Translations under genes and position numbers: made by a program
Shown here: positions 6,372 through 28,079 of the stretch, in pieces
Layout of the letters: each line of letters opens with the position of its first letter
Position numbering within the stretch: the stretch's first letter is position 1
Origin: Bacillota bacterium
Lineage (GTDB): Bacteria > Bacillota > Clostridia > Caldicoprobacterales > Xylanivirgaceae
NCBI GenBank assembly: GCA_023621995.1
Contig: JAMOAB010000052.1
Coordinates: forward strand, 1 to 33,980
Reading direction: 5' to 3'
Length of the DNA stretch: 33,980 nucleotides
The notes under the pieces: generated by a model
The model's input: the letters and a program-made list of their open reading frames with translations, nothing else
Databases searched by the model: none
Told to the model about the DNA's origin: nothing

Positions 6372-6414
6372 GAAAAACAAGACATGGCGTAGTCTACGCC
6401 ATGTCTTGTTTTTC
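6372..6414. terminator. Bidirectional terminator with 20-bp perfect stem
   Basis: The perfect 20-bp arms 6372-6391 and 6395-6414 enclose a 3-nt loop, with AAAAA/TTTTT runs at the base. It terminates the PBP gene on the plus strand and the TatD fusion gene on the minus strand. The last codons of the latter lie in one arm and its TAG stop spans the loop boundary. Confidence 0.92.
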
Positions 6415-7785
6415 TACAAATTTTCTAACTCTAAATCCCACTCCGAGATCTTCAGCTATTCTCTTCGAGGCTTCTATCTTATCAGGTGGCAATATATCTA
6501 CAACCGATAGTACCACATTTGGCACATATTCTCTACATGCCTTAGCAAACTCTAACATACCACAAAATGCATCTTCACCATACTCCGACCTACATAGCTT
6601 TTGATATTCTTCTTTTGTAGGAGCATTTAAGCTTATAGACACTGTATCTATAATACCTTCAAAGCGGGGAGCGATGTTCTCACCATGGTAGAGATTTGCC
6701 TGGCCGTTTGTATTTATCCTGGTCTTCCCACCTTGAGCCTTTACCGCCTTAGCTATCTCTATGAGTTCATCAAGTTTTATGGTAGGTTCACCATAGCCAC
6801 AAAATATTACTTCAGAATAACGGCTAGCATCGCCTATGAGGTCTATTACCTCCTGTGCTGTCGGTTCCCTCTCTAGCCATAGATTATAACCTCCAACACC
6901 TGCGTTTTCATTCCTTATACAAAAATCACATCTATTTGTACACCTATTGGTTAAATTTATATATAGTGCATCGCCAAGTACATATACAAATGTATCCATT
7001 GAGCTTCCATCCCTCTCATATTTAATGTTGAAAAGATTTAGAGTGTTCTGAAAGGTGACCATTGCCACCTCCTCTACTGGAATTCCGCGAATCTCGGCTA
7101 TCTTCTGTGCCACTAATGGCACATATCCTGGGTCGTTACGCCTACCTCTGAATGGATGGGGAGTTAGATAGGGAGAATCGGTCTCTATTAAAAGCCTGTC
7201 CAAGGGAACCTCCCTTGCCACCTCTATGGGGCGCTTGGCATTTTTAAATGTCACAGGACCACCTAAGGATATATAAAACCCAAGCTCCAAAAACTCCCTC
7301 ATCATCTCCACACTGCCTGAAAAGCAATGCATGACCCCACCTGGAATCTTATCTATATTTTCTACTATAATATCTAATGTGTCGGCGTGGGCATCCCTAT
7401 TGTGTACAATTATGGGCAGCCCTACCCGGCTTGCCAGCTCTATCTGATCTACAAAACGTCTCTTTTGTACATCCCTTGGAGAATTATCATAGTAGTAGTC
7501 AAGGCCTATCTCCCCTATGGCAACTACTTTTTCATAAGACGCCATCTGCTCTAGCTCTTCTATATGACTATCCAACATAGATTCAACATTGTGGGGATGA
7601 ATACCCACGGCTGCATATATATGGGGATAACTTTTAGCAAGTTCTATGGCAGCCCTTGAAGATTCTATTGTATCTCCAGGGTTTATTACACAGGCCACTC
7701 CCCTATTTAATAGGCCTCTTATGAGCACATCCCTATCTTCTTCAAATTTTATATCATCGAGGTGAGCATGACTATCAAAGAACAT
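6394..7785 (-). CDS. TatD-family hydrolase fused to radical SAM domain
   Basis: A 463-aa two-domain protein. Residues 1 to about 256 are a TatD metal-dependent hydrolase (deoxyribonuclease-type TIM barrel). Its ligands are all visible: H6/H8 (SHAHLD), E92, H128, H153 (MHCFSGS) and D203 (ETDSPYL). Residues about 264-463 form a radical SAM domain with the 4Fe-4S motif C282-x3-C286-x2-C289 and a GYGEPT motif at 330-335. The second part matches the TatD-associated radical SAM family, which usually accompanies TatD as a neighbour or a fusion and has no established substrate. The ATG follows an AGGTGAT site that overlaps the metG stop, so the gene is the second member of a metG operon. The same order (metS-yabD) occurs in Bacillus. 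Coding sequence runs into the terminator stem. Confidence 0.9.
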   Translation of the reverse strand: MFFDSHAHLDDIKFEEDRDVLIRGLLNRGVACVINPGDTIESSRAAIELAKSYPHIYAAVGIHPHNVESMLDSHIEELEQMASYEKVVAIGEIGLDYYYDNSPRDVQKRRFVDQIELASRVGLPIIVHNRDAHADTLDIIVENIDKIPGGVMHCFSGSVEMMREFLELGFYISLGGPVTFKNAKRPIEVAREVPLDRLLIETDSPYLTPHPFRGRRNDPGYVPLVAQKIAEIRGIPVEEVAMVTFQNTLNLFNIKYERDGSSMDTFVYVLGDALYINLTNRCTNRCDFCIRNENAGVGGYNLWLEREPTAQEVIDLIGDASRYSEVIFCGYGEPTIKLDELIEIAKAVKAQGGKTRINTNGQANLYHGENIAPRFEGIIDTVSISLNAPTKEEYQKLCRSEYGEDAFCGMLEFAKACREYVPNVVLSVVDILPPDKIEASKRIAEDLGVGFRVRKFVEKQDMA

Positions 7786-9781: not shown

Positions 9782-10054
9782 AAAAAATAAAAACCTCACC
9801 CCATACAAGGGGCGAGGAAATTCGCGGTACCACCCTATTTTGCCACTGCCTTACGGCAGAAGCCTCTATAGCGATCTAGCAATCGCCTAACCGTGGTAAC
9901 GGAGTCATCCGTGATGACTTACTTAAAATTTTCAGCCATCCTGCTCCAGGGCCATATTCAGTAAATCACCTATCGCTGGCTCTCACCTGCCCCAGCTCTC
10001 TTTTAGATAGGCTCCTTAACCTACTCTTCCCTTCATCGCATTTCGCTCTCATCA
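9782..10054 (-). promoter_or_regulatory. Met-specific T-box riboswitch leader of metG
   Basis: A complete T-box leader on the minus strand. Stem I carries the usual GAGAGCTGGGG and GGTGA...AGCCAGC elements. The specifier loop contains GAATATGG, giving ATG (Met) at 9953-9955, which agrees with the downstream synthetase gene. Stem III contains CTGCCGTAAGGCAG. The conserved T-box AGGGTGGTACCGCG is at 9823-9836. It is followed by an intrinsic terminator, CCTCGCCCC/GGGGTGAGG plus T-run (9782-9817). Uncharged tRNA-Met should stabilise the antiterminator and allow metG expression. Confidence 0.95.
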
Positions 10055-15800: not shown

Positions 15801-16118
15801 ATCGAAACCTCCCTATTATGCTATCTTTTTGTTGATACTATCATTTAAATAGATTTATACCCATGGTGCAAAATATATAAACAATAGTTTGATTTTTAAC
15901 AATCTTAATTTGGATGCTTGTATCAATATATAATGAAGAGAAAAATAATAGTAATTCTCTATATAACTTATTTAAGATAAAACCTCCTACGGATTTGTCA
16001 ATTTTTAAACAGATTGTCTTTACAATATCTACTTTTTTGTATATGTCGAGTAAATGCAAATAATACAAATATATGGAAGTCATGTATAATAGCCGTCAGT
16101 TTGGATAAAACATATACC
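15801..16118. other. Divergent intergenic region ccdA / LCP1
   Basis: An AT-rich spacer without a convincing gene. A TATAAT at 16085-16090 may be the -10 for the LCP gene but has no clear -35. On the minus strand a TTGACA (about 15997-16002) followed by GTAGGAGG (15982-15989) looks like an expression signal. No ATG, GTG or TTG follows at usable distance, and the 80-aa open frame across it does not look like a protein. Confidence 0.45.
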
Positions 16119-17084
16119 ATGAGAAAATTTTTAATACTGGTTTTAAGTATAATGCTAGTTTGCCTCATACTTACAGGAGCATACATAGCAGTGCAGCTTA
16201 GCTATATAGATCATAAACCCTTTTCCCTGCAAAAGGAGGTACAAAGATTAAAGGAATATCTAGGGATAGTGGATGGCTCTCCTGAAGAGTCTGCTACAGG
16301 GGTTACAAACATATTACTTTTAGGAATAGATAGGCGCACAACTACAGAAGTCTCACGCTCCGATGTCATGATGATAGCATCAATAGATAAAAAAAACAAA
16401 CAATTAAAGCTTACATCCCTCATGCGGGATATGTATATTCCCATACCAGATAAGGGGAGCAATAGAATAAATACCGCCTATCAGCTAGGGGGACCTGCCC
16501 TCTCTATAAAGACGGTAAATACAAATTTTGATCTGGACATAACCAGATATGCCATTGTAGATTTCTTTGCCCTAGAACATGTAATAGATATTATAGGTGG
16601 TATTGAAATTGAACTTACTCCTGAAGAGGTGGAACTCATAAACCTCTATATAGATGACCTAAACCGTTTAGATGAGACAGACAAAAGATCTCCATATATA
16701 AAAGATGCAGGAACGCAGCTATTAGATGGCAGACAGGCTGTTGCCTATACACGTATACGCTATACAAAAGGTGGAGACTTCCAACGTACAAAAAGACAGC
16801 GAACCGTCCTAGATACAATGTTTAAAAAGTTATCCTCAACCAGTAAGTTAAAATATCCTGATCTCTTAGCCTCAATCCTCCCCTATGTAGAGACTAATAT
16901 CTCCCGATCTGAGATATTGAGCTTGGGAGCCCGTATAGCCACATTTAAAAACAGGGAAATTCTACAATACAGGATACCTGTAGATAAGACATTTAAAGAA
17001 CAAAAGATAAGGGGAATGGATGTATTAGTGCCTGATATAGATGAAAATAAAAGACTGCTACATGAATTTATATATGGCAGATAA
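16119..17084 (+). CDS. LytR-CpsA-Psr (LCP) family glycopolymer ligase, copy 1
   Basis: LCP proteins transfer undecaprenyl-pyrophosphate-linked polymers such as teichoic acids or capsules onto peptidoglycan through a phosphodiester bond, outside the membrane. The 321-aa protein has one N-terminal membrane helix (about 4-26). Its LCP domain shows ILLLGIDRR (66-73), RSD (80-82), LTSLMRDMY, NTAYQLGG, GGIEIEL and a C-terminal ARG-rich TRIRYTKGGDFQRTKRQR block. The ATG at 16119 begins the usual MRKF-type membrane anchor. The longer open frame upstream does not look coding. The ribosome binding site is weak (only GGA), so translation may be low. A close paralogue lies 168 bases downstream. Confidence 0.9.
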   Translation: MRKFLILVLSIMLVCLILTGAYIAVQLSYIDHKPFSLQKEVQRLKEYLGIVDGSPEESATGVTNILLLGIDRRTTTEVSRSDVMMIASIDKKNKQLKLTSLMRDMYIPIPDKGSNRINTAYQLGGPALSIKTVNTNFDLDITRYAIVDFFALEHVIDIIGGIEIELTPEEVELINLYIDDLNRLDETDKRSPYIKDAGTQLLDGRQAVAYTRIRYTKGGDFQRTKRQRTVLDTMFKKLSSTSKLKYPDLLASILPYVETNISRSEILSLGARIATFKNREILQYRIPVDKTFKEQKIRGMDVLVPDIDENKRLLHEFIYGR

Positions 17085-17189
17085 TGTTAAGTTCATATAT
17101 TGTTCATATATTTATATTATAATGTAATAGGCAAAATACAAAAGTTGTTACAAAATGATAAAAATATGGTAACATTATCTGCCTAAGTA

Positions 17190-17218
17190 TTGACTTGCAT
17201 GTTGTTTTATAGAATAAT
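17190..17218 (+). promoter_or_regulatory. Sigma-A-like promoter of LCP2
   Basis: TTGACT (17190-17195), a 17-base spacer, then AATAAT (17213-17218), 35 bases before the start codon of the second LCP gene. It gives that gene its own promoter apart from read-through from LCP1. Confidence 0.7.
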
Positions 17219-17252
17219 TGTTGTATAGTTCAATTTGGAGGTTTAGAAAGAC

Positions 17253-18668
17253 ATGAAAAAGTTTCTTATAATAACACTGACAGTACTAATAGTTGCTCTT
17301 GTCGGGACAGGAATATATGCCTATTCATTGCTCAATGGTATAACTAGAACCTCGCTGGCAGAATCTACTCCTGAGGACCTGGGAATATCTGATTCTGCAC
17401 CTAAGGAGGAGGATACAGGCGTAGTGAATGTGTTGCTCTTTGGTATCGACCGTCGTGATCCTAATGAGAAGGGTTCTCGCTCTGATGCTATAATGATAGC
17501 TACAGTTGACAAAAAACATCAAAAGCTAAAACTCACATCTCTCATGAGGGACATGTATGTATCCATACCTGGCAAACCCGATCATAAGCTAAACTCCGCA
17601 TATGCCTTTGGTGGTCCTGCTCTAGCAATAAAGACAGTAAATACCAACTTCGATCTCAATATAAAGAGATATGCCACAGTAGACTTTTTTGGATTAGAAA
17701 ATATAATAGATACCCTAGGTGGTGTAGAGATAGATGTAAAAAAAGGAGAAGTAAAGTATATAAATCAATATTTAGACGAGCTAAATAGCATTGATCAATC
17801 GGGTAAGAAATCCCCCTATGTTACAGATGCTGGACTTCAGACCCTAGATGGCAAACAAGCAGTGGCATATTGCCGTATAAGATATGTAGGTAGAGATGAC
17901 TTTGAACGTACTGAAAGGCAGAGAAGAGTCCTTGCACAGCTATTTGAAAAGGCCAAGGATATAAATGTCACTGATGCACCTAAACTGGCATCGGCCATAT
18001 TCCCCTACGTGGAAACAAATATGACTAATACCGAAATAATTACCCTAGGAACAGCAGTGCTTGGTTTTAAAGACAAGACCATATATCAGTATAGAATCCC
18101 AGCTGACGGCACTTTTACAAGTCCGACAATCAAAAAGATGTCTGTACTAGTACCTGATTTTGATGCTAACAAAAAACTGCTACATGAATTTCTCTACAAT
18201 AGTGATGGGAATATTGACGACGAGGTGGTAGAAAATATATTAAAGTCAGTCCCTAAGACTACTAATACCTCAGATAGTAGTAATAAAGCCAGTCCTTCCA
18301 AGGCTACCAATACAACTGATAATAATAAAAAAAATAATAACACTGCCAAGCCGAAGAGTAAACCTAAAGATGATACGACACAAACTACAACTACCACAAA
18401 ACCTAAGGACGGGGGGCAACCAAAAAATGATAATGTCCCTCCTAAAACCGAAGAAAAACCACCTTCTGAACCTACACAACCTGAGGAACAAGACAACAAT
18501 GAAGGTAATAAAAGCCAAGATGGAGAAACTACTCCGCCAGATCAAGAACAAAATCCTAAAGATGAAGGCGAAAATAATCCACCAGCAGAAAATACACCTT
18601 CTACTGATAGCAGACCAGTAGATAAAAATCCCGTATCCACTAGTACAGCTGAAAATACTGCTGCTTAA
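17253..18668 (+). CDS. LytR-CpsA-Psr (LCP) family glycopolymer ligase, copy 2, with long disordered tail
   Basis: A 471-aa paralogue of the preceding gene. It has an N-terminal membrane helix (about 4-26) and an LCP domain from about 57 to 315: VLLFGIDRRDP, RSDAIMIATVD, LTSLMRDMYV, LNSAYAFGGPALAIKTVN, CRIRYVGRDDFERTERQR. The last 140 or so residues, absent from copy 1, are a low-complexity tail rich in Thr, Asn, Lys, Pro and Glu. This looks like a spacer that crosses or embeds in the wall. GGAGG lies 11 bases before the ATG. The long tail produces spurious antisense frames. The two LCP genes probably arose by tandem duplication. Confidence 0.92.
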   Translation: MKKFLIITLTVLIVALVGTGIYAYSLLNGITRTSLAESTPEDLGISDSAPKEEDTGVVNVLLFGIDRRDPNEKGSRSDAIMIATVDKKHQKLKLTSLMRDMYVSIPGKPDHKLNSAYAFGGPALAIKTVNTNFDLNIKRYATVDFFGLENIIDTLGGVEIDVKKGEVKYINQYLDELNSIDQSGKKSPYVTDAGLQTLDGKQAVAYCRIRYVGRDDFERTERQRRVLAQLFEKAKDINVTDAPKLASAIFPYVETNMTNTEIITLGTAVLGFKDKTIYQYRIPADGTFTSPTIKKMSVLVPDFDANKKLLHEFLYNSDGNIDDEVVENILKSVPKTTNTSDSSNKASPSKATNTTDNNKKNNNTAKPKSKPKDDTTQTTTTTKPKDGGQPKNDNVPPKTEEKPPSEPTQPEEQDNNEGNKSQDGETTPPDQEQNPKDEGENNPPAENTPSTDSRPVDKNPVSTSTAENTAA

Positions 18669-18714: not shown

Positions 18715-21348
18715 TTATTTTTTTATAAGCCGTATCTCTATAGCCTCTAATCTCTTGCCCTGTCCTGTGGTGCCTGCTATACTGCCCTCAGGTACCCAAT
18801 CTTGTTGCCAACCTATACCCTGTACATGGGCTCTATACTCTATGCTATAGCCAGGAGGTGCACCCTCTAGCTCTATCTGTATTGCCTCTAATCGAAGTGA
18901 CCTTCCTACTGTGCCTGCCATATGGTCACCATATACCCATGATTGCCAGCCGTCTTTCTCCACATGGGCTCTATATTTTATCTTCATATCTTTAGGAGCA
19001 TCTAAGAGTTTTATCTCTAGTGCTTCTAGCCTGAGGCTCCTACCTTCTGTACCGGCCATTTCTCCCTCTTTCACAAATGGCTGCCAACCATCACTCTGGA
19101 CATGGGCTCTATAGGTAAGAGACGGCTCCCTCTCCGGTGAAGAGGAGGTATTGCTTAGCTTTATGCGTATAGCCTCTATCCGCTTGCCGCTACCTGGTAG
19201 TCCTGCTACCTGGCCATCCTCAACCCAATCCATCCAGCCTACTCCCTGCATATGGACCTGGTATTGAACACTATAACCTGGTACATTGTCAAGGGCTATG
19301 GCTATGGCCTCTATCCGCTTTGACTGGCCCTGGGTTCCTGCTATATCGCCATTTGACATCCAACTCTGCCAGCCTGTGCCTTCTACGTATGTCCTATACT
19401 TTACGCCCATCCCTGGCTCTTCGCCTAACAACTGTATCTTTAGAGCTTCCAACCTAAGGGCCTTGCCAGTGGTGCCTGAAATATCGTCACCTTTGACCCA
19501 GTCTTGCCAACCTACTCTTTGTGAGTGACCTACATGTATTATACTAAACTCTCCTGGGTCTGGCTTAGGTACAGGAGGTGGGTCTAGCTTTGGTGGTGTA
19601 ATCGGCTCCGGCTTAGGTTTTGGTGCCGATGGGAGGGCCGGCGCCGGCAGAAGTGTCTCAAACGTAACGCCTGGGAAATAGAATGATAGTATCTCCCTAT
19701 AATTGTGTCCATAATCCCTTGCCCGTGCGTAGGCACCTATCTGGCTCATGCCAACTCCATGCCCATAACCTACACCAGACAGCTCATACCTTGCAGAACT
19801 TGGACTGTCGTCTACCTTCTCACTCCAAGCTTGGGTGCTATCCATGATCTGATAGCTTACAAATCCCCTATTTAGATCTATAGCTGTTCCCGATGGAACG
19901 GTACGCATTTCCACCGCCTCTATGGCAGGTGATGTAGTCTCCCCACTTCCTGCTATATGTCCATTCTCTGTCCAATTTTGCCAGCCCTGCCCCTCCACAT
20001 ATACCCTATACTGGAGTTTCCAGCCGGCTGGTGCATCGACAAGCTCCATCTTAAGCCCTTGTATGGGCTGTCCACTTAAAGTTTTAACTGCGTCATCACC
20101 GTCATATGACCAGTCTTGCCAACCAAGTCCCTTAACATATGCTTGATATCTTATGCCCATACTATTTATGGGTTGGATGAGTTTGGCCTTAAAATTTTGA
20201 ATTGGCGCTCCACTTTTTGGCGAACCTGCATATCGCTCATCGGGTATATACTTTATATCATACTTAGTACTTCTAACTCTATAATCCTTGAATGCATTGC
20301 GGGGTCTTTCTTTTTTAAGGGTAAGGACTCCATCTGTGCCTATTATCTTCATCTCACGTATGCTGCCACTCTCGTTTCTCACGATATTATCTATATCTAT
20401 GGAGACAAATTCTCCTATGGACAAACCATTATCACCAATTGCTCCTCTAAATATACCTCTAAGCCCCTTTTCCCCATTTCTATCGTCCACCTTTAAAGTA
20501 TGGGACCAGGTATATGCAAGGTGAGGGAAATGCACTGTCCTAGCAAGGGTATCGGCCTCATCGGGAAAGGAGCGAAGAACCGGATCTGCACTTGTCCAAA
20601 CATTCTCCGATGCCTCAGTATACCCACCATTTGACGCACCATATGTGACATTTGCAAGATAATTACCATATTCTAGCACAATGCCCTTTGTCTCCTCTAT
20701 TGCACGAATGGCATTTTTATGATTTTTATTATAGCCTTTGAAAACTTGGAAGCTTGTCGTATCATCCACATGCCAATCCCGACCTCGTTTAGCATACATA
20801 TGGCGGAGGGCAAAGGTTCGTGCAACCACCGCTTGAGATTTCAGGGCTTCAAGGGGCCAGCTGTCACTCATCTCATAGGGAAGTACCCCCACAAGGTATG
20901 TCTCTAGAGGCAGATGGGCTATGGGTTGTACATAGGCCCTGCCACTCTCTGTATATCTATGGAACTCCATATTCCCCCTATAGTTGTATGAACCTACGGT
21001 AATGAGCCCATTTGGTTCATCCACCGGTCTTAATACTATTTTCGATGATGCCTCATGTAAGATTTTCCCACTGTCATCCTTTATCCTAAGGCCACTGCCA
21101 CCGATGGCCACACTATATTTGGTCCCTGCATGGAGATATGTATCGCTCCCATCTATGAGATATGAAGCATTCACTGTAAACGACATACCCTGTGGTTTGC
21201 CCTGATAGGTAATCAATACCCGTATATGATTGTTATATGCCTCTTGTATACTACTGCTCAGTGCTGCCTGGACTGTGTTACTAGGTATTAATGTAAATAT
21301 AATAGTTAGTACATATAGAGCTACTAAAAATCTTGCAAACCTCTTCAC
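18715..21348 (-). CDS. Secreted SpoIID/LytB-domain protein with eight ChW repeats
   Basis: An 877-aa exported wall protein. The signal peptide is about 1-28 (TVQA/AL). The SpoIID/LytB lytic transglycosylase-type domain runs from about 135 to 565. Its probable catalytic Glu is E159 (PYEMSDSWPLEALKSQAVVA), with ASNGGYTEASENVW at about 238-251. The closing motif GVGYGHGVGMSQIGAYA is at about 525-541. Two ChW (clostridial hydrophobic W) repeats (about 398-482) are inserted inside this domain. A proline/lysine linker (about 568-599) leads to six more ChW repeats of about 46 aa (about 602-877), each with a G-W-x-x-W/F core and a G-R-S-L-R-L-E-A-like ending. The start is GTG with GGGGG 9 bases upstream. 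It lies 43 bases after rfbC with no terminator, so it is probably the last gene of the rhamnose operon. ChW repeats probably bind the wall or sugars. It may act in vegetative wall remodelling rather than engulfment. Confidence 0.9.
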   Translation of the reverse strand: MKRFARFLVALYVLTIIFTLIPSNTVQAALSSSIQEAYNNHIRVLITYQGKPQGMSFTVNASYLIDGSDTYLHAGTKYSVAIGGSGLRIKDDSGKILHEASSKIVLRPVDEPNGLITVGSYNYRGNMEFHRYTESGRAYVQPIAHLPLETYLVGVLPYEMSDSWPLEALKSQAVVARTFALRHMYAKRGRDWHVDDTTSFQVFKGYNKNHKNAIRAIEETKGIVLEYGNYLANVTYGASNGGYTEASENVWTSADPVLRSFPDEADTLARTVHFPHLAYTWSHTLKVDDRNGEKGLRGIFRGAIGDNGLSIGEFVSIDIDNIVRNESGSIREMKIIGTDGVLTLKKERPRNAFKDYRVRSTKYDIKYIPDERYAGSPKSGAPIQNFKAKLIQPINSMGIRYQAYVKGLGWQDWSYDGDDAVKTLSGQPIQGLKMELVDAPAGWKLQYRVYVEGQGWQNWTENGHIAGSGETTSPAIEAVEMRTVPSGTAIDLNRGFVSYQIMDSTQAWSEKVDDSPSSARYELSGVGYGHGVGMSQIGAYARARDYGHNYREILSFYFPGVTFETLLPAPALPSAPKPKPEPITPPKLDPPPVPKPDPGEFSIIHVGHSQRVGWQDWVKGDDISGTTGKALRLEALKIQLLGEEPGMGVKYRTYVEGTGWQSWMSNGDIAGTQGQSKRIEAIAIALDNVPGYSVQYQVHMQGVGWMDWVEDGQVAGLPGSGKRIEAIRIKLSNTSSSPEREPSLTYRAHVQSDGWQPFVKEGEMAGTEGRSLRLEALEIKLLDAPKDMKIKYRAHVEKDGWQSWVYGDHMAGTVGRSLRLEAIQIELEGAPPGYSIEYRAHVQGIGWQQDWVPEGSIAGTTGQGKRLEAIEIRLIKK

Positions 21349-21391: not shown

Positions 21392-21946
21392 TTATTCAAA
21401 CATATCTTCCGAAAAATTTGGCCATCTCTTATCCTTATCCGATAATATAATATCCTCCACCCTATCTAGGGGCCACTCAATACCGATGGTTGGGTCATTC
21501 CATGCTATGCCTCCCTCATCCTCTGGATGATAAAAATCAGTACACTTATATGCAAACACCGCCTCATCTGAGAGAACCAAAAAACCATGGGCAAATCCTT
21601 CCGGTATGTATAGCTGTTTTTTATTCCCTTCTGATAGCACTATACCGTACCAGCTCTTATATGTTGGCGACTTAGGTCTGATATCCACTGCAACGTCAAA
21701 CACCTCACCTTTGAGCACCCTAACTAATTTGCCTTGGGGGTATTCCTTTTGAAAGTGTAACCCCCTTAGTACACCCTTTACTGACTTTGATTGATTGTCC
21801 TGCACAAATACGCTGTAGAGCCCTGCTGATTTAAATTCATCATAGTTGTATGTCTCCATGAAGTATCCTCGCTCATCTTCAAATACGGTAGGCTCTACAA
21901 CATATAGTCCAGGTATGTGGGTCTTTGTAAATTCAAATTTTGCCAA
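21392..21946 (-). CDS. rfbC: dTDP-4-dehydrorhamnose 3,5-epimerase
   Basis: Third step of dTDP-L-rhamnose synthesis: double epimerisation of dTDP-4-keto-6-deoxyglucose. A cupin-fold protein of 184 aa with FEDERGYFMETY, VLRGLHFQ (catalytic His at H64), KLVRVLKGEVFDVAVDIR and IPEGFAHGFLVLSD. The open frame extends 23 codons into rfbB. GGGGAGG sits 8 bases before a TTG at 21946, which gives the normal family length, and the rfbB stop lies only 4 bases upstream. TTG is therefore the chosen start. Fourth gene of the rfbDABC operon. Confidence 0.95.
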   Translation of the reverse strand: MAKFEFTKTHIPGLYVVEPTVFEDERGYFMETYNYDEFKSAGLYSVFVQDNQSKSVKGVLRGLHFQKEYPQGKLVRVLKGEVFDVAVDIRPKSPTYKSWYGIVLSEGNKKQLYIPEGFAHGFLVLSDEAVFAYKCTDFYHPEDEGGIAWNDPTIGIEWPLDRVEDIILSDKDKRWPNFSEDMFE

Positions 21947-21950
21947 ACTA

Positions 21951-23018
21951 TCATGCCTCCCCTCTATTGCCATACATCTCTTCGTAGTATTTTTGATAGT
22001 CGCCAGATACGACATTCTCCATCCATTCCCTGTTGTTTAAATACCACTCTATGGTCATGATTATTCCCTCATCAAAGAGTACCTTTGGCTTCCATCCAAG
22101 ATCTCTGCCTATTTTGGTAGGATCTATGGCATAGCGCCAATCATGACCCTTTCTGTCGGCTACAAATGTTATGAGTCCCTCTGTTATAGTATTGTCTACG
22201 TTCTTATTTAGATAATCTATAATAGTCTTTACTATATCGATATTAGTCTTCTCATTATGGCCACCTATGTTATAAATCTCACCTGGCTCTGCCCTATGCA
22301 TAACTAGATCTATAGCTTCCACATGATCGCCTACATAGAGCCAATCACGTACATTTAGGCCATCTCCATAGACAGGCAAAGGCTTTTTATTGAGGCAGTT
22401 ATTGATTATAAGTGGGATAAGTTTTTCAGGAAATTGGTATGGACCATAGTTATTACTACACCTTGTTATATTTATAGGCATACCATATGTATGGAAGTAT
22501 GCATTTACTATGAGATCTGCCGATGTCTTACTAGCTGAATATGGACTTCTAGGAGCTAGGGGAGTATCTTCAGTGAAGTATCCTGTATCTCCCAGTGAGC
22601 CATATACTTCATCGGTAGATACCTGTAAAAACTTCTTTCCTTCTAAGAAACTTCCGTCTTCCTTCTCCCATGCCTTCTTGGCTGCATTTAAAAGGGTATT
22701 TGTACCCAACACATTTGTCTGTATGAATATATTTGGATCTTCTATACTCCTATCTACATGACTCTCAGCTGCAAAATTTACCACATAATCTATGTCATAT
22801 CTATTGAACAGATCGTCTACAAGCTCTTCGTCACATATGTCTCCACGGACAAATGTATACTTTGAATTATTCTCCACACTCTTTAAATTGTCTAGATTCC
22901 CTGCATATGTGAGCTTGTCTAAGTTGATTATGTGATAATCTTCATACTTATCTAACATATAGAGGACAAAATTACTACCGATAAATCCGGCGCCTCCAGT
23001 TACAAGTACTGTCTTCAT
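21951..23018 (-). CDS. rfbB: dTDP-glucose 4,6-dehydratase
   Basis: Second step of dTDP-L-rhamnose synthesis: NAD-dependent conversion of dTDP-glucose to dTDP-4-keto-6-deoxyglucose. A 355-aa extended-SDR enzyme with the Rossmann motif GGAGFIGS (8-15), T135-D136-E137 in STDEVYGS and the catalytic Y160-x3-K164 (SPYSASK). Length and motifs are normal. AAGGAG lies 10 bases before the ATG and overlaps the end of rfbA, whose stop is 5 bases upstream. Confidence 0.97.
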   Translation of the reverse strand: MKTVLVTGGAGFIGSNFVLYMLDKYEDYHIINLDKLTYAGNLDNLKSVENNSKYTFVRGDICDEELVDDLFNRYDIDYVVNFAAESHVDRSIEDPNIFIQTNVLGTNTLLNAAKKAWEKEDGSFLEGKKFLQVSTDEVYGSLGDTGYFTEDTPLAPRSPYSASKTSADLIVNAYFHTYGMPINITRCSNNYGPYQFPEKLIPLIINNCLNKKPLPVYGDGLNVRDWLYVGDHVEAIDLVMHRAEPGEIYNIGGHNEKTNIDIVKTIIDYLNKNVDNTITEGLITFVADRKGHDWRYAIDPTKIGRDLGWKPKVLFDEGIIMTIEWYLNNREWMENVVSGDYQKYYEEMYGNRGEA

Positions 23019-23023
23019 ATCGA

Positions 23024-23764
23024 TTAATCTCCTTCCTGTTCTTCTAGTTCAACATCCATGTCAGCTGCCAGCTGATTAGCTGCAGCAAGGGAGGGAAATG
23101 TACCTGCGTCTGTCCACCAACCCTCTAATATATCATAAGTCAGTGTCCCAGCTTCTATATATGCATTATTCACATCGGTTATCTCCAGCTCGCCCCTACC
23201 CGATGGTTTTAATCTTTTTATAATATCAAAGGCATCACTGTCATACATATATATACCTGTAACACAGTAGTTACTCTTTGGCTCCTCTGGTTTTTCTTCT
23301 ATAGAGACTATCTTGCCATGCTTTATCTCAGCAACTCCATATCGCTTAGGATCCTTTACCCGTTTTATGAGTATCTTAGCACCCTTCTCCTGTCTTTTGT
23401 AGTTTTCTACATATCGAGTTATGCTATCTTGGAAGATATTATCACCTAATATGACAACACATCTGTCGTCTCCTACAAAACCTTCGGCAAGCCCTAACGC
23501 TTCTGCTATACCGCCTGGCCTATCCTGTACCCTATATGTGAAATTTAAACCCATGTCTGCTCCACTACCTAACAAGTTTACAATTGCACCTGCATGCTCT
23601 TTGCCAGTGACTATGAGTATATCCTCTATACCTGCCTCCTTTAGCTTGTATATGGGGTGGTATATCATTGGATATTTACCTACCGGTAGCAGATGTTTGT
23701 TTGTTACCTTAGATAGGGGATATAACCTAGATGCAGTTCCCCCTGCTAATACTATACCTTTCAT
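23024..23764 (-). CDS. rfbA: Glucose-1-phosphate thymidylyltransferase (short form)
   Basis: First step of the pathway: glucose-1-phosphate + dTTP to dTDP-glucose. The 246-aa nucleotidyltransferase has LAGGTASRLYPLSKVTNKHL, LLPVGKYPMIYHPI, DRPGGIAEAL and VILGDNIF. It is about 45 residues shorter than typical RmlA (about 290 aa), lacking the C-terminal helical region. The G-S-G-T-R loop of classical RmlA reads G-T-A-S-R. Such short forms are known among sugar nucleotidyltransferases. The operon context is the main reason for assigning dTDP-glucose. ATG overlaps the rfbD stop (ATGA). GGAGG lies 12 bases upstream. Confidence 0.88.
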   Translation of the reverse strand: MKGIVLAGGTASRLYPLSKVTNKHLLPVGKYPMIYHPIYKLKEAGIEDILIVTGKEHAGAIVNLLGSGADMGLNFTYRVQDRPGGIAEALGLAEGFVGDDRCVVILGDNIFQDSITRYVENYKRQEKGAKILIKRVKDPKRYGVAEIKHGKIVSIEEKPEEPKSNYCVTGIYMYDSDAFDIIKRLKPSGRGELEITDVNNAYIEAGTLTYDILEGWWTDAGTFPSLAAANQLAADMDVELEEQEGD

Positions 23765-24615
23765 TGTTGTATAAAACCTCCTTCGAAATATTCCTCAAGT
23801 CCTTCTCTCCAATGGACAAAACTATCTAGACCTATAAGTTTTAGCATGAAATTATCTAAAACCGAATAGGCAGGCCGTCTAGCTGGGCTTCCAAATTCCT
23901 CTGTGGTGGTGGGCGTTACCTCCACATCCATGTCAGCTAGCTTAAATATCTCCTTGGCAAACTCATACCAGCTACAGCTTCCTTGGCAAGTTCCATGGTA
24001 TACTCCATAGCTATCTGTGTGTATTAGATCTAATATACATCTTGCAAGAAGTAGAGTACTTGTGGGACTTCCCACTTGGTCATCTACTACTTTGACCTTT
24101 CCCTTCTCCCTACCTAATCGGATCATTGTCTTTACAAAATTGGCACCATCTCCATATAGCCACGCTGTACGTACTATGAAATGCCTTGGATTTAGTGTTC
24201 TAGCCATATCCTCTCCCAGTTTCTTTGACGCACCATATACGTTTATAGGGTTTAAGCTATCTGTCTCCCTATAAGGATGATTGGCAGTTCCATCAAAGAC
24301 ATAATCTGTAGACACTTGTACAAGTTTTGCTCCTACTTTGAAGGATGCTGCAGATAGATTTTGTACTCCTATGCCATTTATAGAAAAGGCTTTGTATTCA
24401 TTAGTCTCACATCTATCTACATTTGTATAGGCTGCACAATTTATGACCACATTGGGTTTTGCCGATAGTATAGCATCAAATACCTGGTCACTGCAAGTTA
24501 TATCTAGGTTATCAATATCTGTGGCCACCACCTCATAGGTAGGATATCTGTCCTCTATTTGACGAATTATCTCCTTGCCCAATTGACCCTTTGCCCCTGT
24601 TATAAATATCTTCAT
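23761..24615 (-). CDS. rfbD: dTDP-4-dehydrorhamnose reductase
   Basis: Last step of dTDP-L-rhamnose synthesis: NAD(P)H reduction of dTDP-4-keto-L-rhamnose. A 284-aa SDR-type reductase with GAKGQLGKE at the N-terminus, NCAAYTNVDRCE, STDYVFDG and the catalytic Y127-x3-K131 (VYGASKKLGE). GGAGG lies 8 bases before the ATG. It is the first gene of rfbD-rfbA-rfbB-rfbC, with a 4-base overlap into rfbA. Confidence 0.96.
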   Translation of the reverse strand: MKIFITGAKGQLGKEIIRQIEDRYPTYEVVATDIDNLDITCSDQVFDAILSAKPNVVINCAAYTNVDRCETNEYKAFSINGIGVQNLSAASFKVGAKLVQVSTDYVFDGTANHPYRETDSLNPINVYGASKKLGEDMARTLNPRHFIVRTAWLYGDGANFVKTMIRLGREKGKVKVVDDQVGSPTSTLLLARCILDLIHTDSYGVYHGTCQGSCSWYEFAKEIFKLADMDVEVTPTTTEEFGSPARRPAYSVLDNFMLKLIGLDSFVHWREGLEEYFEGGFIQQ

Positions 24616-25154: not shown

Positions 25155-28079
25155 ATGGCAAAGCGCAATATTACAAAAATTGCGTCGTTAATAGGAATCC
25201 TCTCTCTAATCATGACAATCTTACCAACACAAGCTAGGGCAGCAGCCACACCCAATATCTTTGAGAATGCTATACATAGGAATCTAAAAGACGAGCGAAT
25301 AACCCGGGGTATAACACATACTACCTTCGAAGTGTTTGACAGTGAAGGATGGCTGAGGGGCAATATACTCACAGTAGACCTCAAAGACGGTAATGTAAAG
25401 TCAGATCTTTTAATGTCTAATACCCTAACTGATAGAAAAGTACCTACCGAACTTGCAAATGAAGCTCGGGCAATTGCAGCGGTAAACGGCGATTTCTTCT
25501 ATCTCGGTTCAGCCACAGTACCACGGGGCTATGTTGTAAAGTCAGGCGAACTTCTAAAATCTAGTCCAAGGTGGGACAAGACGATGGCAATAACCACTGG
25601 TAATATGGGCAAGATGTTAAATCTCGCCATGTCAGGAACTATACAGAATCTATCCCGCCCTGGTTCTCTGTCCATTCCCATAGGTGGGCTAAACGATATA
25701 TATCCAAATCCAAATAGCGTAGTATTATACACACACATATGGGGAAGTAAGACCCGGAGCGGCTTCTTGTCAGGGGCTAAAAACTATACAGAAGTAGTTG
25801 TAAAAGGTAATAAAATAATAGACAAGATAGAAAATGGTCTATATACTAAAAAATTAGACGAAGATATGTATCTCCTTCTGGGACGGGAAGAAGGTGCAAA
25901 CAGACTACGTACCCAGCTCCAAATAGGTGATACTATAGATATTAAATATGCAACTGCACCCGACTATAAAGAGCTTGCCTATGCCCTATCTGGCGATGAA
26001 TTTGTAGTAAAGGATGGAAGACCACTTACCTTCCCTACAAATCCATATCGCCATCCGCGTACAGCAGTAGGCTTCAACAAAGATGGCACTATTATGTATT
26101 TGGCAACCATAGATGGAAGGTCATCCCTCAGTCGAGGCATGAGCTATAGTGAGTTAGGACAGTTTATGGCATCTTTAGGTGCATGGAATGCCCTCAATCT
26201 AGACAGCGGTGGTTCTACCCAGATGGCAGTACGGGAACCAGGGAACACAAAGCCCACCATTACAAATTCTCCTTCAGATGGACGAGAGAGGGCAGTGCCC
26301 AATGGTATTGGTCTTTTTACAACATCACCTGAAGGCAATTTAGAGGGCTTTCATATAAAGACTGAAGACAATAGAGTATTTCCAGGGTTTAGCCGCACAT
26401 TCACATCAGCTCCCTATGATGAATATGGCAATCCCCTAAAGATAGATACAAAACCTAATTGGATGAGCGAGCTTGGTACATTTGAAAGCCCTGGTATACT
26501 GAGCGCTAACCAATCTGGGAAGGGAGAGGTCAAGGTAAGTCTAGCCGATATAGTATCTACACATTCAATAGAAGTCCTTGGGGCACTTTCCTCCATATAC
26601 ACTGATACTACACACATGACACTTAATAATGGTAAGAAGGGAAGTTTTAAAGTATATGGAGTAGACGAAATGGGATATAGTACCTCCATTGAAACAAGGG
26701 ATATAACCCTTTCATTTAATAAGGATCTTGTCGATGTAGTACCAGACGATAACAATAGCTTCCAAGTAGCGCCCAAAGTAGCTAATGGCTCAGGTCTTAT
26801 AGAGATTAAAGCAGGAGACAAGATATGTCATATGGGCTTTGCCATAGGCACCAAGAACATTATCGTAGATAGCTTTGATGATATAAACAAATGGGCATTT
26901 AGAAAATATCCAGAACAGGTAGGCGGAAAAGTAAGCATTGTACAGAATAAAGAGCGAAAGGGCAATATAATAAGGTTAGACTATGACTTTAGGCATACAA
27001 CAGTAAGTCGTGCTGCCTATGTAACGGCAATGCCTAAGCCCTTAGAACTGCCTAAAGATCCATTGGCACTAGGAGTATGGGTACATGCCGACGGTGGATA
27101 TAATCATTGGCTTAGGGGGCATATAAGAGATAACACCGGAAAACAACATGTAATAGATTTTGCAAATCCTGTGAACTGGAAGGGATGGAAATACGTTGAA
27201 GCTAAGATGCCTACAGGCCTTCCACAGCCCCTATATTTGGAGAGAATATATGTAGTTGCCACCGATCCTAAACAGCTCAATGCCCATTCAATATTCTTTG
27301 ATGATATAACTGCAGTAGTGCCACAAACTGTGGAACTGCCTGAGCGAGAACAAAAGACAGATTCAATAGTAGTACCAGAGGCAAATGGCTGGAGGCTGGC
27401 TACTGTATCCAATCTTTATCTCGATGGCAACAGGCCTATAGAGGAGAGTGTAAAAAAGATCCAAGACAGTTTGGCTAAAGCCTTAGCCGAAGAAACTGAA
27501 ACGATTATATTTGCTGGTAACCTGGTGGCAAAGGGTACTCTCCAAGACTATAAATACGCAAAAGAATGTATCGAAAAAGCCCTACCTAAAGGCATGGATT
27601 ATTATGTAGTACCTAGTCCACAGGATACAAATCCCTCTGGAACTCTCACAGACTTTGCTAAAGTCTTTGGAGGTAACTCCAACGGATTTGATAAAAATGG
27701 CACAAGATTCTTCATATTAAATATGGCAACCAATAGTTGGCGTACTTCAAATCCCAACCAGTGGACAGTAATAAAAGATACAATAGAAAAGGCAAAAAAC
27801 GATGAGAATATACACAGCTTAGTCATGATAAATTGTGCACCTATATATAATAGAAATTCATATAGACCAATTACAGCTGATTCTGGCGAAGCTAAGCTCA
27901 TGCAGCAGATGCTAACTCAATTTGTCAATGATACAGGTAAATCAGCAGTATTTATTCATGGTACTAGCAGTGGAGTCTATCGCATAAGTGGAATTCCCCA
28001 TATAGGAACAGATAATAGGGCCACTATAATTGCAATAGATCCATCTAGTGATGATAAGATAAAGGTCATACAGAAATAA
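25155..28079 (+). CDS. Secreted phosphodiester glycosidase (NAGPA domain) protein with degenerate C-terminal phosphoesterase-like domain
   Basis: A 974-aa exported protein. The signal peptide is about 1-29 (TQARA). The NAGPA domain (about 90-390) carries AVNGDFF (N111-G112-D113), PRTAVGFNKDG and LNLDSGGST (D350-S-G-G353). It is related to the enzyme that removes GlcNAc from a phosphodiester-linked sugar. A beta-rich Ig-like region follows (about 395-565), then a jelly-roll, CBM-like segment (about 570-725). The last part (about 746-974) has the order and spacing of a calcineurin-like phosphoesterase, but the metal-binding positions are replaced: SNLY for D-x-H, AGNLV for G-D, SPQD for G-N-H and HGTSSG for G-H-x-H. 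GGAGG lies 8 bases before the ATG. Divergent from the rhamnose operon; the substrate is unknown, perhaps a phosphodiester-linked wall glycan. Confidence 0.85.
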   Translation: MAKRNITKIASLIGILSLIMTILPTQARAAATPNIFENAIHRNLKDERITRGITHTTFEVFDSEGWLRGNILTVDLKDGNVKSDLLMSNTLTDRKVPTELANEARAIAAVNGDFFYLGSATVPRGYVVKSGELLKSSPRWDKTMAITTGNMGKMLNLAMSGTIQNLSRPGSLSIPIGGLNDIYPNPNSVVLYTHIWGSKTRSGFLSGAKNYTEVVVKGNKIIDKIENGLYTKKLDEDMYLLLGREEGANRLRTQLQIGDTIDIKYATAPDYKELAYALSGDEFVVKDGRPLTFPTNPYRHPRTAVGFNKDGTIMYLATIDGRSSLSRGMSYSELGQFMASLGAWNALNLDSGGSTQMAVREPGNTKPTITNSPSDGRERAVPNGIGLFTTSPEGNLEGFHIKTEDNRVFPGFSRTFTSAPYDEYGNPLKIDTKPNWMSELGTFESPGILSANQSGKGEVKVSLADIVSTHSIEVLGALSSIYTDTTHMTLNNGKKGSFKVYGVDEMGYSTSIETRDITLSFNKDLVDVVPDDNNSFQVAPKVANGSGLIEIKAGDKICHMGFAIGTKNIIVDSFDDINKWAFRKYPEQVGGKVSIVQNKERKGNIIRLDYDFRHTTVSRAAYVTAMPKPLELPKDPLALGVWVHADGGYNHWLRGHIRDNTGKQHVIDFANPVNWKGWKYVEAKMPTGLPQPLYLERIYVVATDPKQLNAHSIFFDDITAVVPQTVELPEREQKTDSIVVPEANGWRLATVSNLYLDGNRPIEESVKKIQDSLAKALAEETETIIFAGNLVAKGTLQDYKYAKECIEKALPKGMDYYVVPSPQDTNPSGTLTDFAKVFGGNSNGFDKNGTRFFILNMATNSWRTSNPNQWTVIKDTIEKAKNDENIHSLVMINCAPIYNRNSYRPITADSGEAKLMQQMLTQFVNDTGKSAVFIHGTSSGVYRISGIPHIGTDNRATIIAIDPSSDDKIKVIQK

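What the first reader, a model, noticed from the sequence alone, without database searches (positions are those of the whole stretch)
27390..28079. A pseudo-phosphoesterase domain at the end of the NAGPA protein
Residues about 746-974 follow the order of a calcineurin-like phosphoesterase fused behind a NAGPA domain. Every expected metal-binding motif is altered: SNLY (752-755) for D-x-H, AGNLV (787-791) for G-D, SPQD (821-824) for G-N-H, MINCAP (891-896) for the H motif and HGTSSG (935-940) for G-H-x-H. This suggests the fold was kept while catalysis was lost, perhaps for binding a phosphorylated glycan.
Basis: partly seen in the sequence, partly recalled or inferred. Interest (0 to 1): 0.55.

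Follow-up and report, generated by a model that had tools for sequence, protein, structure and literature searches.

The report
Dead phosphoesterase tail on wall enzyme
A secreted bacterial enzyme that probably cuts sugar-phosphate bonds in the cell wall carries at its end a second enzyme-shaped domain that has kept its fold but lost every residue needed to hold metal, and similar dead tails are common in related bacteria.

Summary
ORF 25155-28079 (974 aa) is a secreted NAGPA protein whose last ~237 residues fold as a calcineurin-like phosphoesterase (AlphaFold2 pLDDT 90.4; Z 21.6 to Rv0805, 20.7 to GpdQ). All seven scored metal-ligand columns that relatives keep are replaced (window N,Y,N,P,Q,C,T). 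Ligand-keeping NAGPA fusions exist in Actinomycetota, one archaeal record and a few Bacillota, and align motif for motif. The window is no lone oddity: its closest relative (G003) and a large group of Clostridia fusions are ligand-less too. Trees place the window pair with the ligand-keeping clade (SH-aLRT 97-99), but AU tests with corrected labels do not reject one common loss (p 0.17-0.42); a Streptomyces copy is a clearer separate loss. In ligand-less proteins the domain turns from the better- to the less-conserved part, yet close pairs still show purifying selection, and conservation lies in the core and one invariant Glu (E912), not in the metal pocket. Best reading: a non-catalytic structural or targeting module rather than a phosphoglycan-binding pocket. 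NAGPA-phosphoesterase fusions are in print (Updegrove 2024); my searches found no report of ligand-less ones.

The parts
25155..28079 (+). 974-aa secreted protein: signal segment, NAGPA, Ig-like part, beta-sandwich part, ligand-less phosphoesterase domain
   Evidence: the ORF listing; Pfam NAGPA E 2.7e-33; signal segment judged from the hydrophobic N-terminus only
25266..26354 (+). NAGPA (phosphodiester glycosidase) region, residues 38-400
   Evidence: PF09992 over its cut-off; phmmer to 3ohg (DUF2233 family) E 1.7e-14 and to NAGPA entries such as 6pku E 3.2e-5
26355..26864 (+). Ig-like linker region, residues 401-570
   Evidence: weak: Big-like E 0.26, below cut-off; no Pfam family at E 0.01 on residues 401-722 alone
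26865..27320 (+). beta-sandwich (carbohydrate-binding-like) region, residues 571-722
   Evidence: weak: FlaA1 E 2.1e-5 on residues 630-692, below cut-off; Lyase_N E 1.1e-4, below cut-off, in relative L006
27366..28076 (+). ligand-less calcineurin-like phosphoesterase domain, residues 738-974
   Evidence: AF2 pLDDT 90.4, pTM 0.88; Foldseek best E 6.4e-10; VIA Z 21.6
27408..27419 (+). former motif I: SNLY for D-x-H/Q
27513..27527 (+). former motif II: AGNLV for G-D
27615..27626 (+). former motif III: SPQD for G-N-H-E
27825..27842 (+). former motif IV: MINCAP, Cys at the His position
27957..27974 (+). former motif V: HGTSSG for G-H-x-H/G
   Evidence: register uncertain by two residues
27888..27890 (+). 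E912, identical in 61 of 61 ligand-less and 31 of 31 ligand-keeping copies counted
21392..24615 (-). dTDP-rhamnose genes RmlC, RmlB, RmlA, RmlD, divergent from the NAGPA gene
   Evidence: Pfam; same order beside NAGPA in G003 (L145)
16014..18668 (+). two LytR-CpsA-Psr (LCP) wall-polymer ligase genes, 16014-17084 and 17253-18668
   Evidence: Pfam PF03816; both match one place beside the same cluster in G003

Best explanation
The protein is a secreted phosphodiester glycosidase that probably acts on a sugar-1-phosphate linkage of a rhamnose-containing wall polymer. Its C-terminal domain is a calcineurin-like phosphoesterase that has lost its metal site and so, most likely, its catalysis; it is kept as a non-catalytic module that packs against or places the NAGPA/beta-sandwich part at the wall. 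Shown here by sequence and model: the fold, loss of all scored ligands, descent shared with ligand-keeping fusions, a change of relative constraint, no conservation of the old pocket, and a gene neighbourhood conserved in one sister genus. Inferred: loss of catalysis, the scaffold/targeting role, and the wall-linkage substrate. About 0.95 for the dead-phosphoesterase identity and about 0.5 for the structural/targeting role; the figure given is for both together.
For: Fold: then 50 and 51 (Rv0805 Z 21.6, 205 residues, rmsd 2.4; GpdQ Z 20.7). A second model, of L066 from 19 ligand-less rows only, still gives the fold (pLDDT 92.1; GpdQ Z 16.9, 183 residues, rmsd 2.6). Homology: profile A3 reaches GpdQ at 6.6e-8; PF00149 matches 28 of 49 A3 rows but not the window. 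Ligand loss. Descent: the window pair falls in a set with 26 ligand-keeping rows in the NAGPA tree (97*) and in a tree of residues 38-722 (99*), and with 27 in the domain tree (99*). Constraint: domain/NAGPA identity ratio 1.06-1.29 among 26 ligand-keeping rows, 0.69-0.77 among 28 ligand-less Clostridia rows, 0.71-0.74 window against ligand-keeping rows. dN/dS of the ligand-less domain 0.065-0.32 in five of six close pairs, the sixth saturated. Old pocket variable, core and E912 conserved. Context: LCP-RmlCBAD-NAGPA order kept in G003; a streptococcal rhamnopolysaccharide joins MurNAc O6 through a GlcN-1-phosphate diester, and LCP enzymes attach such polymers (PMC8807736, passages), the kind of bond the human NAGPA enzyme cuts in GlcNAc-1-phosphate-6-mannose (PMC12024695, passages).
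Against: No activity, metal content or binding was measured. Window and L003 differ by about half in the NAGPA part and dS is near saturation (domain dN 0.71, dS 2.16, ratio 0.33), so present constraint on the window's own domain is only roughly tested and slow decay is possible: L003 has lost the motif III stretch and its ratio to ligand-keeping rows is the lowest (0.60-0.62). The excess of loss at ligand columns is modest (p=0.043, and 0.070 at the stricter cut). The rhamnose/LCP neighbourhood was found in only one other genome. The ligand-keeping clade is itself not canonical: 25 of 28 A3 rows have Gln at the second motif I position and most lack the second His of GHxH, so its members may not be active either. 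NAGPA's own signature is altered in the window (DSGGS), so even the glycosidase activity is unproven.
Confidence: 0.5

Rival explanations
1. Binding module: the former active-site cleft now holds a phosphorylated or polyol wall glycan without metal. The two Asp-to-Asn changes and the Gln, Tyr and Cys remove negative charge and leave hydrogen-bonding groups.
For: The window's replacements are N, Y, N, P, Q, C, T (or H) with no acidic residue; the protein looks secreted and Pfam shows no separate wall-anchoring domain.
Against: L003, the closest relative, has N, D, R, a deletion and E at the same places; three of the four scorable former ligand columns vary more than the median column in 61 ligand-less copies.
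Confidence: 0.2
2. Relic: the domain has no function and is drifting, kept only because its loss is not selected.
For: It is the least conserved part between window and L003 (62/195 identical, against 177/361 for NAGPA); L003 lacks the motif III stretch and the Clostridia group the motif II-III stretch.
Against: Open, complete domain in two genera; 34 of 84 other strongly conserved columns kept; confident models; dN/dS 0.065-0.32 in close pairs of other ligand-less proteins; E912 in 61 of 61.
Confidence: 0.25
3. Still an enzyme, with metals held by other residues or without metal.
For: Cys894 sits at the motif IV His position; some other copies keep Asp at motifs I and II (L084, L106, L146-L151).
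Against: Three His and two Cys in the whole domain; both motif Asp and the Asn and His of motif III are changed.
Confidence: 0.04
4. Not a phosphoesterase fold at all.
For: No Pfam or NCBIfam phosphoesterase match on the window sequence itself.
Against: and the model built without ligand-keeping rows.
Confidence: 0.01

Closest known systems
NAGPA-calcineurin-like phosphoesterase fusions of the ShfP (YvnB) radiation (Updegrove et al. 2024, PMC11488536; abstract, section 7 and passages seen)
   Same: Secreted proteins with Ig-like domains; a phosphoesterase fused to NAGPA is named there as one architecture.
   Different: In ShfP, Ala changes at D927, D963, NHD997-999, H1080 or H1114/H1116 gave partial or total failure to complement; the matching residues are absent in the window. 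The parts seen mention no ligand-less versions.
Ligand-keeping NAGPA-phosphoesterase proteins of Actinomycetota, Halocatena marina and Bacillota (28 rows of A3; also L153-L155)
   Same: Same domain order, alignable over most of the length; the 27 A3 rows used in the NAGPA tree lie around the window pair (L048 was not in that tree; L153-L155 in no tree).
   Different: They keep 5 to 7 of the 7 scored columns (Gln in motif I counted as kept); the window keeps none.
Ligand-less NAGPA fusions of Clostridia (e.g. Acetivibrio mesophilus L057, Ruminiclostridium sufflavum L077, Desulfosporosinus L062, Thermoanaerobacterium L084)
   Same: NAGPA protein ending in a ligand-poor phosphoesterase-fold domain.
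   Different: Shrunken domain without the motif II-III stretch; a separate group in the trees, though AU tests do not exclude that it is sister to the window pair.
Class III / GpdQ-like metallophosphoesterases (Rv0805, GpdQ)
   Same: Fold; best matches.
   Different: Known as di-metal enzymes (recalled); the ligands are absent here.

Membership tests
Calcineurin-like phosphoesterase superfamily (fold and descent) | Two-repeat alpha/beta sandwich fold | tested here: met
   AF2 model pLDDT 90.4; Z 21.6 to Rv0805, 20.7 to GpdQ
Calcineurin-like phosphoesterase superfamily (fold and descent) | Sequence homology to known members | tested here: met
   Only through relatives: profile A3 to GpdQ 6.6e-8, PF00149 in 28 of 49 A3 rows; the window alone gives no PF00149 match
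Active metallophosphoesterase | Five motifs with di-metal ligands (D-x-H, GD, GNH, H, GHxH) | tested here: not met
   0 of 7 scored ligand columns kept; few His elsewhere
Active metallophosphoesterase | Metal content and hydrolysis | not testable with these tools
   needs protein
NAGPA / phosphodiester glycosidase (PF09992) | Profile match over cut-off | tested here: met
   116 bits against cut-off 25
NAGPA / phosphodiester glycosidase (PF09992) | Catalytic residues in place | tested here: inconclusive
   N111, F114, F115, R302, D320, D350, S354 lie in invariant columns of the 9-row alignment, but DGGGS reads DSGGS in window and L003 only, 2 of 89 rows; the paper on the DUF2233 domain and its function was not held
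ShfP (YvnB) phosphoesterase radiation | Secreted phosphoesterase fused to adhesion/Ig domains, NAGPA in some | tested here: inconclusive
   Architecture agrees with PMC11488536 section 7; place in that paper's tree not tested

The most novel reading that the evidence does not exclude
A secreted metallophosphoesterase tethered to NAGPA has repeatedly been turned into a non-catalytic module (clearly apart in a Streptomyces copy, probably twice more in Bacillota) that is now a frequent form in Clostridia, so the phosphoesterase fold is reused as a wall-enzyme part (scaffold or targeting), with selection moved from the metal cleft to another surface around E912.
Probability: 0.45. Interest if true: 0.55.

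Novelty: new variant of a known kind. Interest (0 to 1): 0.42.

Why it matters
Standard annotation misses this domain (no Pfam or NCBIfam phosphoesterase match on the window), while a profile of ligand-less copies finds it in 120 of 391 genomes searched in the class. If the module is truly non-catalytic, it is a bacterial, extracellular case of a metallophosphoesterase fold reused without chemistry, with ligand-keeping relatives of the same architecture as natural controls. It also points to the neighbouring NAGPA domain as a candidate for cutting polymer-peptidoglycan sugar-1-phosphate links, which can be tested directly.

Tried and rejected
My first AU test rejected one clade of the 32 rows I had labelled ligand-less (p 0.00083), and I took it as proof of separate losses for the window pair and the Clostridia group. 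Two rows inside the Clostridia group had been mislabelled as lacking the domain: L114 has it (profile A2 1.4e-29) and is ligand-less, and L091 has an unrecognisable tail at the same place. With these two added the test does not reject one clade (34 rows, p 0.172); nor does the domain alignment (33 rows, p 0.243) nor residues 38-722 (34 rows, p 0.416). So separate loss of window and Clostridia is favoured by the trees but not established; I lowered the novel-case odds from 0.55 to 0.45, the joint confidence from 0.55 to 0.5 and the interest from 0.45 to 0.42, and raised the relic rival from 0.2 to 0.25. The same check showed that L087 (Streptomyces), also labelled as lacking the domain, has a ligand-less remnant (profile A3 2e-20).

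Other dead ends. Pfam and NCBIfam scans of the window domain gave only chance-level matches (DUF7916 E 0.0017, CobB E 0.048, both under cut-off), not followed. phmmer of the domain alone against PDB gave nothing credible. Searching the order with the domain: 2 of 30 genomes, window and G003. GAP50 appeared in the fold lists (Z 18.0) and I considered it as a precedent for an inactive anchor, but the two papers I could see (passages) describe it as a phosphatase, so I dropped it. A VPS29 literature search gave 0 papers. Papers on the DUF2233 domain and on GAP50 were not held. Literature on ligand-less NAGPA-phosphoesterase fusions: searches 'phosphodiester glycosidase'+'bacteri', 'NAGPA'+'metallophosphoesterase' (26), 'NAGPA'+'uncovering enzyme'+'crystal structure'+'catalytic' (37), 'phosphodiester glycosidase family'+'teichoic' (38), 'DUF2233'+'uncovering enzyme' (62), pseudoenzyme terms (63), 'NAGPA'+'peptidoglycan'+'teichoic' (80, 8 of 72 papers listed) showed none in their listings; this covers open-licence PMC text only.

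Rows dropped before counts. From the NAGPA tree I left out L010, L014, L016, L018-L022, L048, L105, L113 by hand (other architecture, partial or short) and L106 for under 200 NAGPA residues. The 30 rows labelled 'no_such_domain' therefore include L114, L091 and L087 (above) and proteins with a phosphoesterase farther on: 4 of 4 checked by Pfam (L068, L074, L080, L109) carry PF00149 after other domains. From the entropy count I left out the window and its duplicates L139 and L152, the G003 copy L127, the partial L172, the stand-alone L174/L175 and near-identical rows (71 to 61). Of the 120 class matches only the 30 best loci (window and G003 among them) were read; none keeps the ligand set; in 4 (L126, L132, L133, L138) the NAGPA signature was not in the stretch held. 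Of 30 phylum loci read, 3 NAGPA fusions of one family (L153-L155) and 2 stand-alone proteins (L174, L175) keep it; 24 others, one of them partial (L172), and the window do not. Trees are 'quick' searches with SH-aLRT only; the domain tree has several long branches.
Full report
Observation. The window ORF 25155-28079 encodes 974 aa. Pfam sees only NAGPA over its cut-off (116 bits).

What the C-terminal part is. No phosphoesterase family matches the window domain itself. Relatives settle it. The search for related loci with an alignment of nine NAGPA proteins kept 80 loci. In 28 of the 48 domains that I aligned with the window (A3), most or all scored metal ligands stand at the window's altered positions: 25 read D,Q,D,N,H,H,H over the seven scored columns, L053 D,K,D,N,H,H,H, L055 D,R,D,N,H,H,H and L035 D,H,D,E,H,H,D; the window reads N,Y,N,P,Q,C,T. 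PF00149 matches 28 of the 49 A3 rows (the call does not name them), and the A3 profile reaches GpdQ in the PDB at 6.6e-8 and Rv0805 at 1.4e-5.

AlphaFold2 on the window domain with A3 gives pLDDT 90.4 and pTM 0.88. Foldseek's best PDB match is Rv0805 (E 6.4e-10), and VIA-align 2 gives Z 21.6, 205 aligned residues, rmsd 2.4 for Rv0805 and Z 20.7 for GpdQ. Because A3 contains ligand-keeping rows, I also modelled a shrunken copy (L066) from 19 ligand-less rows only: pLDDT 92.1, best match GpdQ Z 16.9, 183 residues, rmsd 2.6. The fold is thus predicted to be kept in both ligand-less groups.

How complete the loss is. Of columns at least 85% conserved in 27 ligand-keeping rows, the window keeps 0 of 7 ligand columns and 34 of 84 others (p=0.043; at 95%, 0 of 6 and 21 of 47, p=0.070). 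The domain has three His and two Cys in all. The ligand-keeping clade is itself altered at one metal site: Gln at the second motif I position in 25 of 28 rows, and the second His of GHxH missing in most. L053 and L153-L155 have GHxH but Lys in motif I. So 'ligand-keeping' does not mean proven active.

How widespread. A profile of ligand-less domains (A2) finds the domain in 120 of 391 genomes searched in the class; the 30 best loci were read and none has the ligand set. With the mixed profile A3, 141 of 398 genomes searched in the phylum match, a count that includes stand-alone phosphoesterases; of the 30 loci read, 3 NAGPA fusions of one family and 2 stand-alone proteins keep the ligands. G053 (same class as the window) pairs with Ruminiclostridium sufflavum (100*), so the window's class is probably Clostridia (inference).

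How often it was lost. In a tree of 89 NAGPA regions, window and L003 (100*) lie in a 30-row set with 26 ligand-keeping rows (97*), with ligand-keeping L053 next outside (91); the other ligand-less rows form a separate group of 32 (95*). A tree of residues 38-722 gives the same 30-row set (99*), and the domain tree puts the window pair with 27 ligand-keeping rows (99*). The window also keeps the motif II-III stretch that the Clostridia group lacks. These favour two losses. But AU tests with corrected labels do not reject the window pair and the Clostridia group as one clade: p 0.172 on the NAGPA region (34 rows), 0.243 on the domain (33 rows), 0.416 on residues 38-722 (34 rows). An earlier rejection (p 0.00083) rested on two mislabelled rows. 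A clearer separate loss is L087, a Streptomyces protein lying among 8 Streptomyces rows (100*) whose tail still matches the A3 profile (2e-20) but has lost the motif II-III stretch and nearly all ligands; it is one genome and may be decaying. So at least two losses in all, with the number in Bacillota open, taking the ligand-keeping state as ancestral (established knowledge of the superfamily).

What selection says. Among 26 ligand-keeping proteins the domain is better conserved than NAGPA at the same divergence (ratio 1.06-1.29); among 28 ligand-less Clostridia-group proteins it is less conserved (0.69-0.77, the last bin holding one pair); window against ligand-keeping proteins 0.71-0.74, L003 0.60-0.62. 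In five close ligand-less pairs the domain's dN/dS is 0.065-0.32, above the same pairs' NAGPA (0.029-0.186) but well under 1; two of these pairs share L011, and a sixth pair (L057/L059) had saturated dS and was not used. Ligand-keeping pairs gave 0.109-0.408 for the domain and 0.122-0.420 for NAGPA in the six pairs. In 61 non-redundant ligand-less copies the former motif I, II and IV positions stand at the 70th, 91st and 64th entropy percentile and motif V at the 21st (mostly Gly), while E912 is identical in 61, W870 in 59 and D909 in 53; E912 is also identical in all 31 ligand-keeping copies counted. So constraint left the cleft and stayed on the core and one acidic position. This speaks against a conserved binding site in the old cleft.

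Surroundings. Upstream and divergent lie RmlD, RmlA, RmlB, RmlC (24615-21392), a SpoIID/ChW protein and two LCP ligase genes. In G003 the order LCP-RmlC-RmlB-RmlA-RmlD-NAGPA is kept with 58-78% identity. In the 80 related-loci loci (flanks of at most 5 kb) I saw, at E 1e-8, RmlA-like matches in 7 and an LCP match in 1, so this context is shown for one family only. A streptococcal rhamnopolysaccharide is joined to MurNAc O6 through a GlcN-1-phosphate diester, and LCP enzymes attach GlcNAc-1-phosphate-linked polymers to MurNAc (PMC8807736, passages). The human NAGPA enzyme removes GlcNAc from GlcNAc-1-phosphate-6-mannose (PMC12024695, passages). A role in cutting a wall-polymer linkage is therefore a sensible inference, not shown; the altered DSGGS signature of the window's NAGPA part (2 of 89 rows) is a caution.

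Known work. NAGPA-phosphoesterase fusions are named in the ShfP/YvnB paper (PMC11488536; abstract, section 7 and passages), which shows by Ala changes that the ShfP ligands matter. Ligand-less forms are not mentioned in the parts seen, and my searches (listed under Tried and rejected) showed no paper on them. I file the domain as a catalytically dead descendant of the superfamily, not as an active metallophosphoesterase.

Verdict. Interest is moderate: a clean, testable pseudoenzyme case with natural controls, within a known architecture.

Noticed in passing
window 26202-26216 (residues 350-354); L003: The NAGPA signature DGGGS reads DSGGS in the window and L003 only (2 of 89 rows; L015 has DAGGS; 86 have G), so the NAGPA site of this pair may also be altered.
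   Followed up: partly
L087 (Streptomyces sp. A1136), residues about 730-899: A ligand-less, shortened phosphoesterase remnant inside a group of Streptomyces NAGPA proteins that keep the ligands.
   Followed up: partly
L036 (Halocatena marina, contig of 3.9 Mb): A haloarchaeal record carries a ligand-keeping NAGPA-phosphoesterase gene next to L035 and the Actinomycetota in the tree, suggesting transfer.
   Followed up: no
L153-L155 (three genomes of one family, same phylum): NAGPA fusions with GHxH, NH and both Asp kept but Lys in motif I, like L053.
   Followed up: partly
window 9805-10045 (-): T-box leader in front of the methionyl-tRNA synthetase gene.
   Followed up: no
window 6394-7785 (-): One ORF joins a TatD DNase domain and a radical SAM domain.
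   Followed up: no
window 18715-21348 (-): SpoIID-domain protein with seven ChW stretches beside the rhamnose genes.
   Followed up: no
window 16014-18668 (+): Two LCP genes in tandem, where both match one place in the G003 stretch examined.
   Followed up: no
L068, L074, L080, L109: Paenibacillaceae and Bacillaceae NAGPA proteins of about 1440-2060 aa carry a PF00149 domain farther downstream, some with SLH repeats, apparently another kind of fusion.
   Followed up: partly
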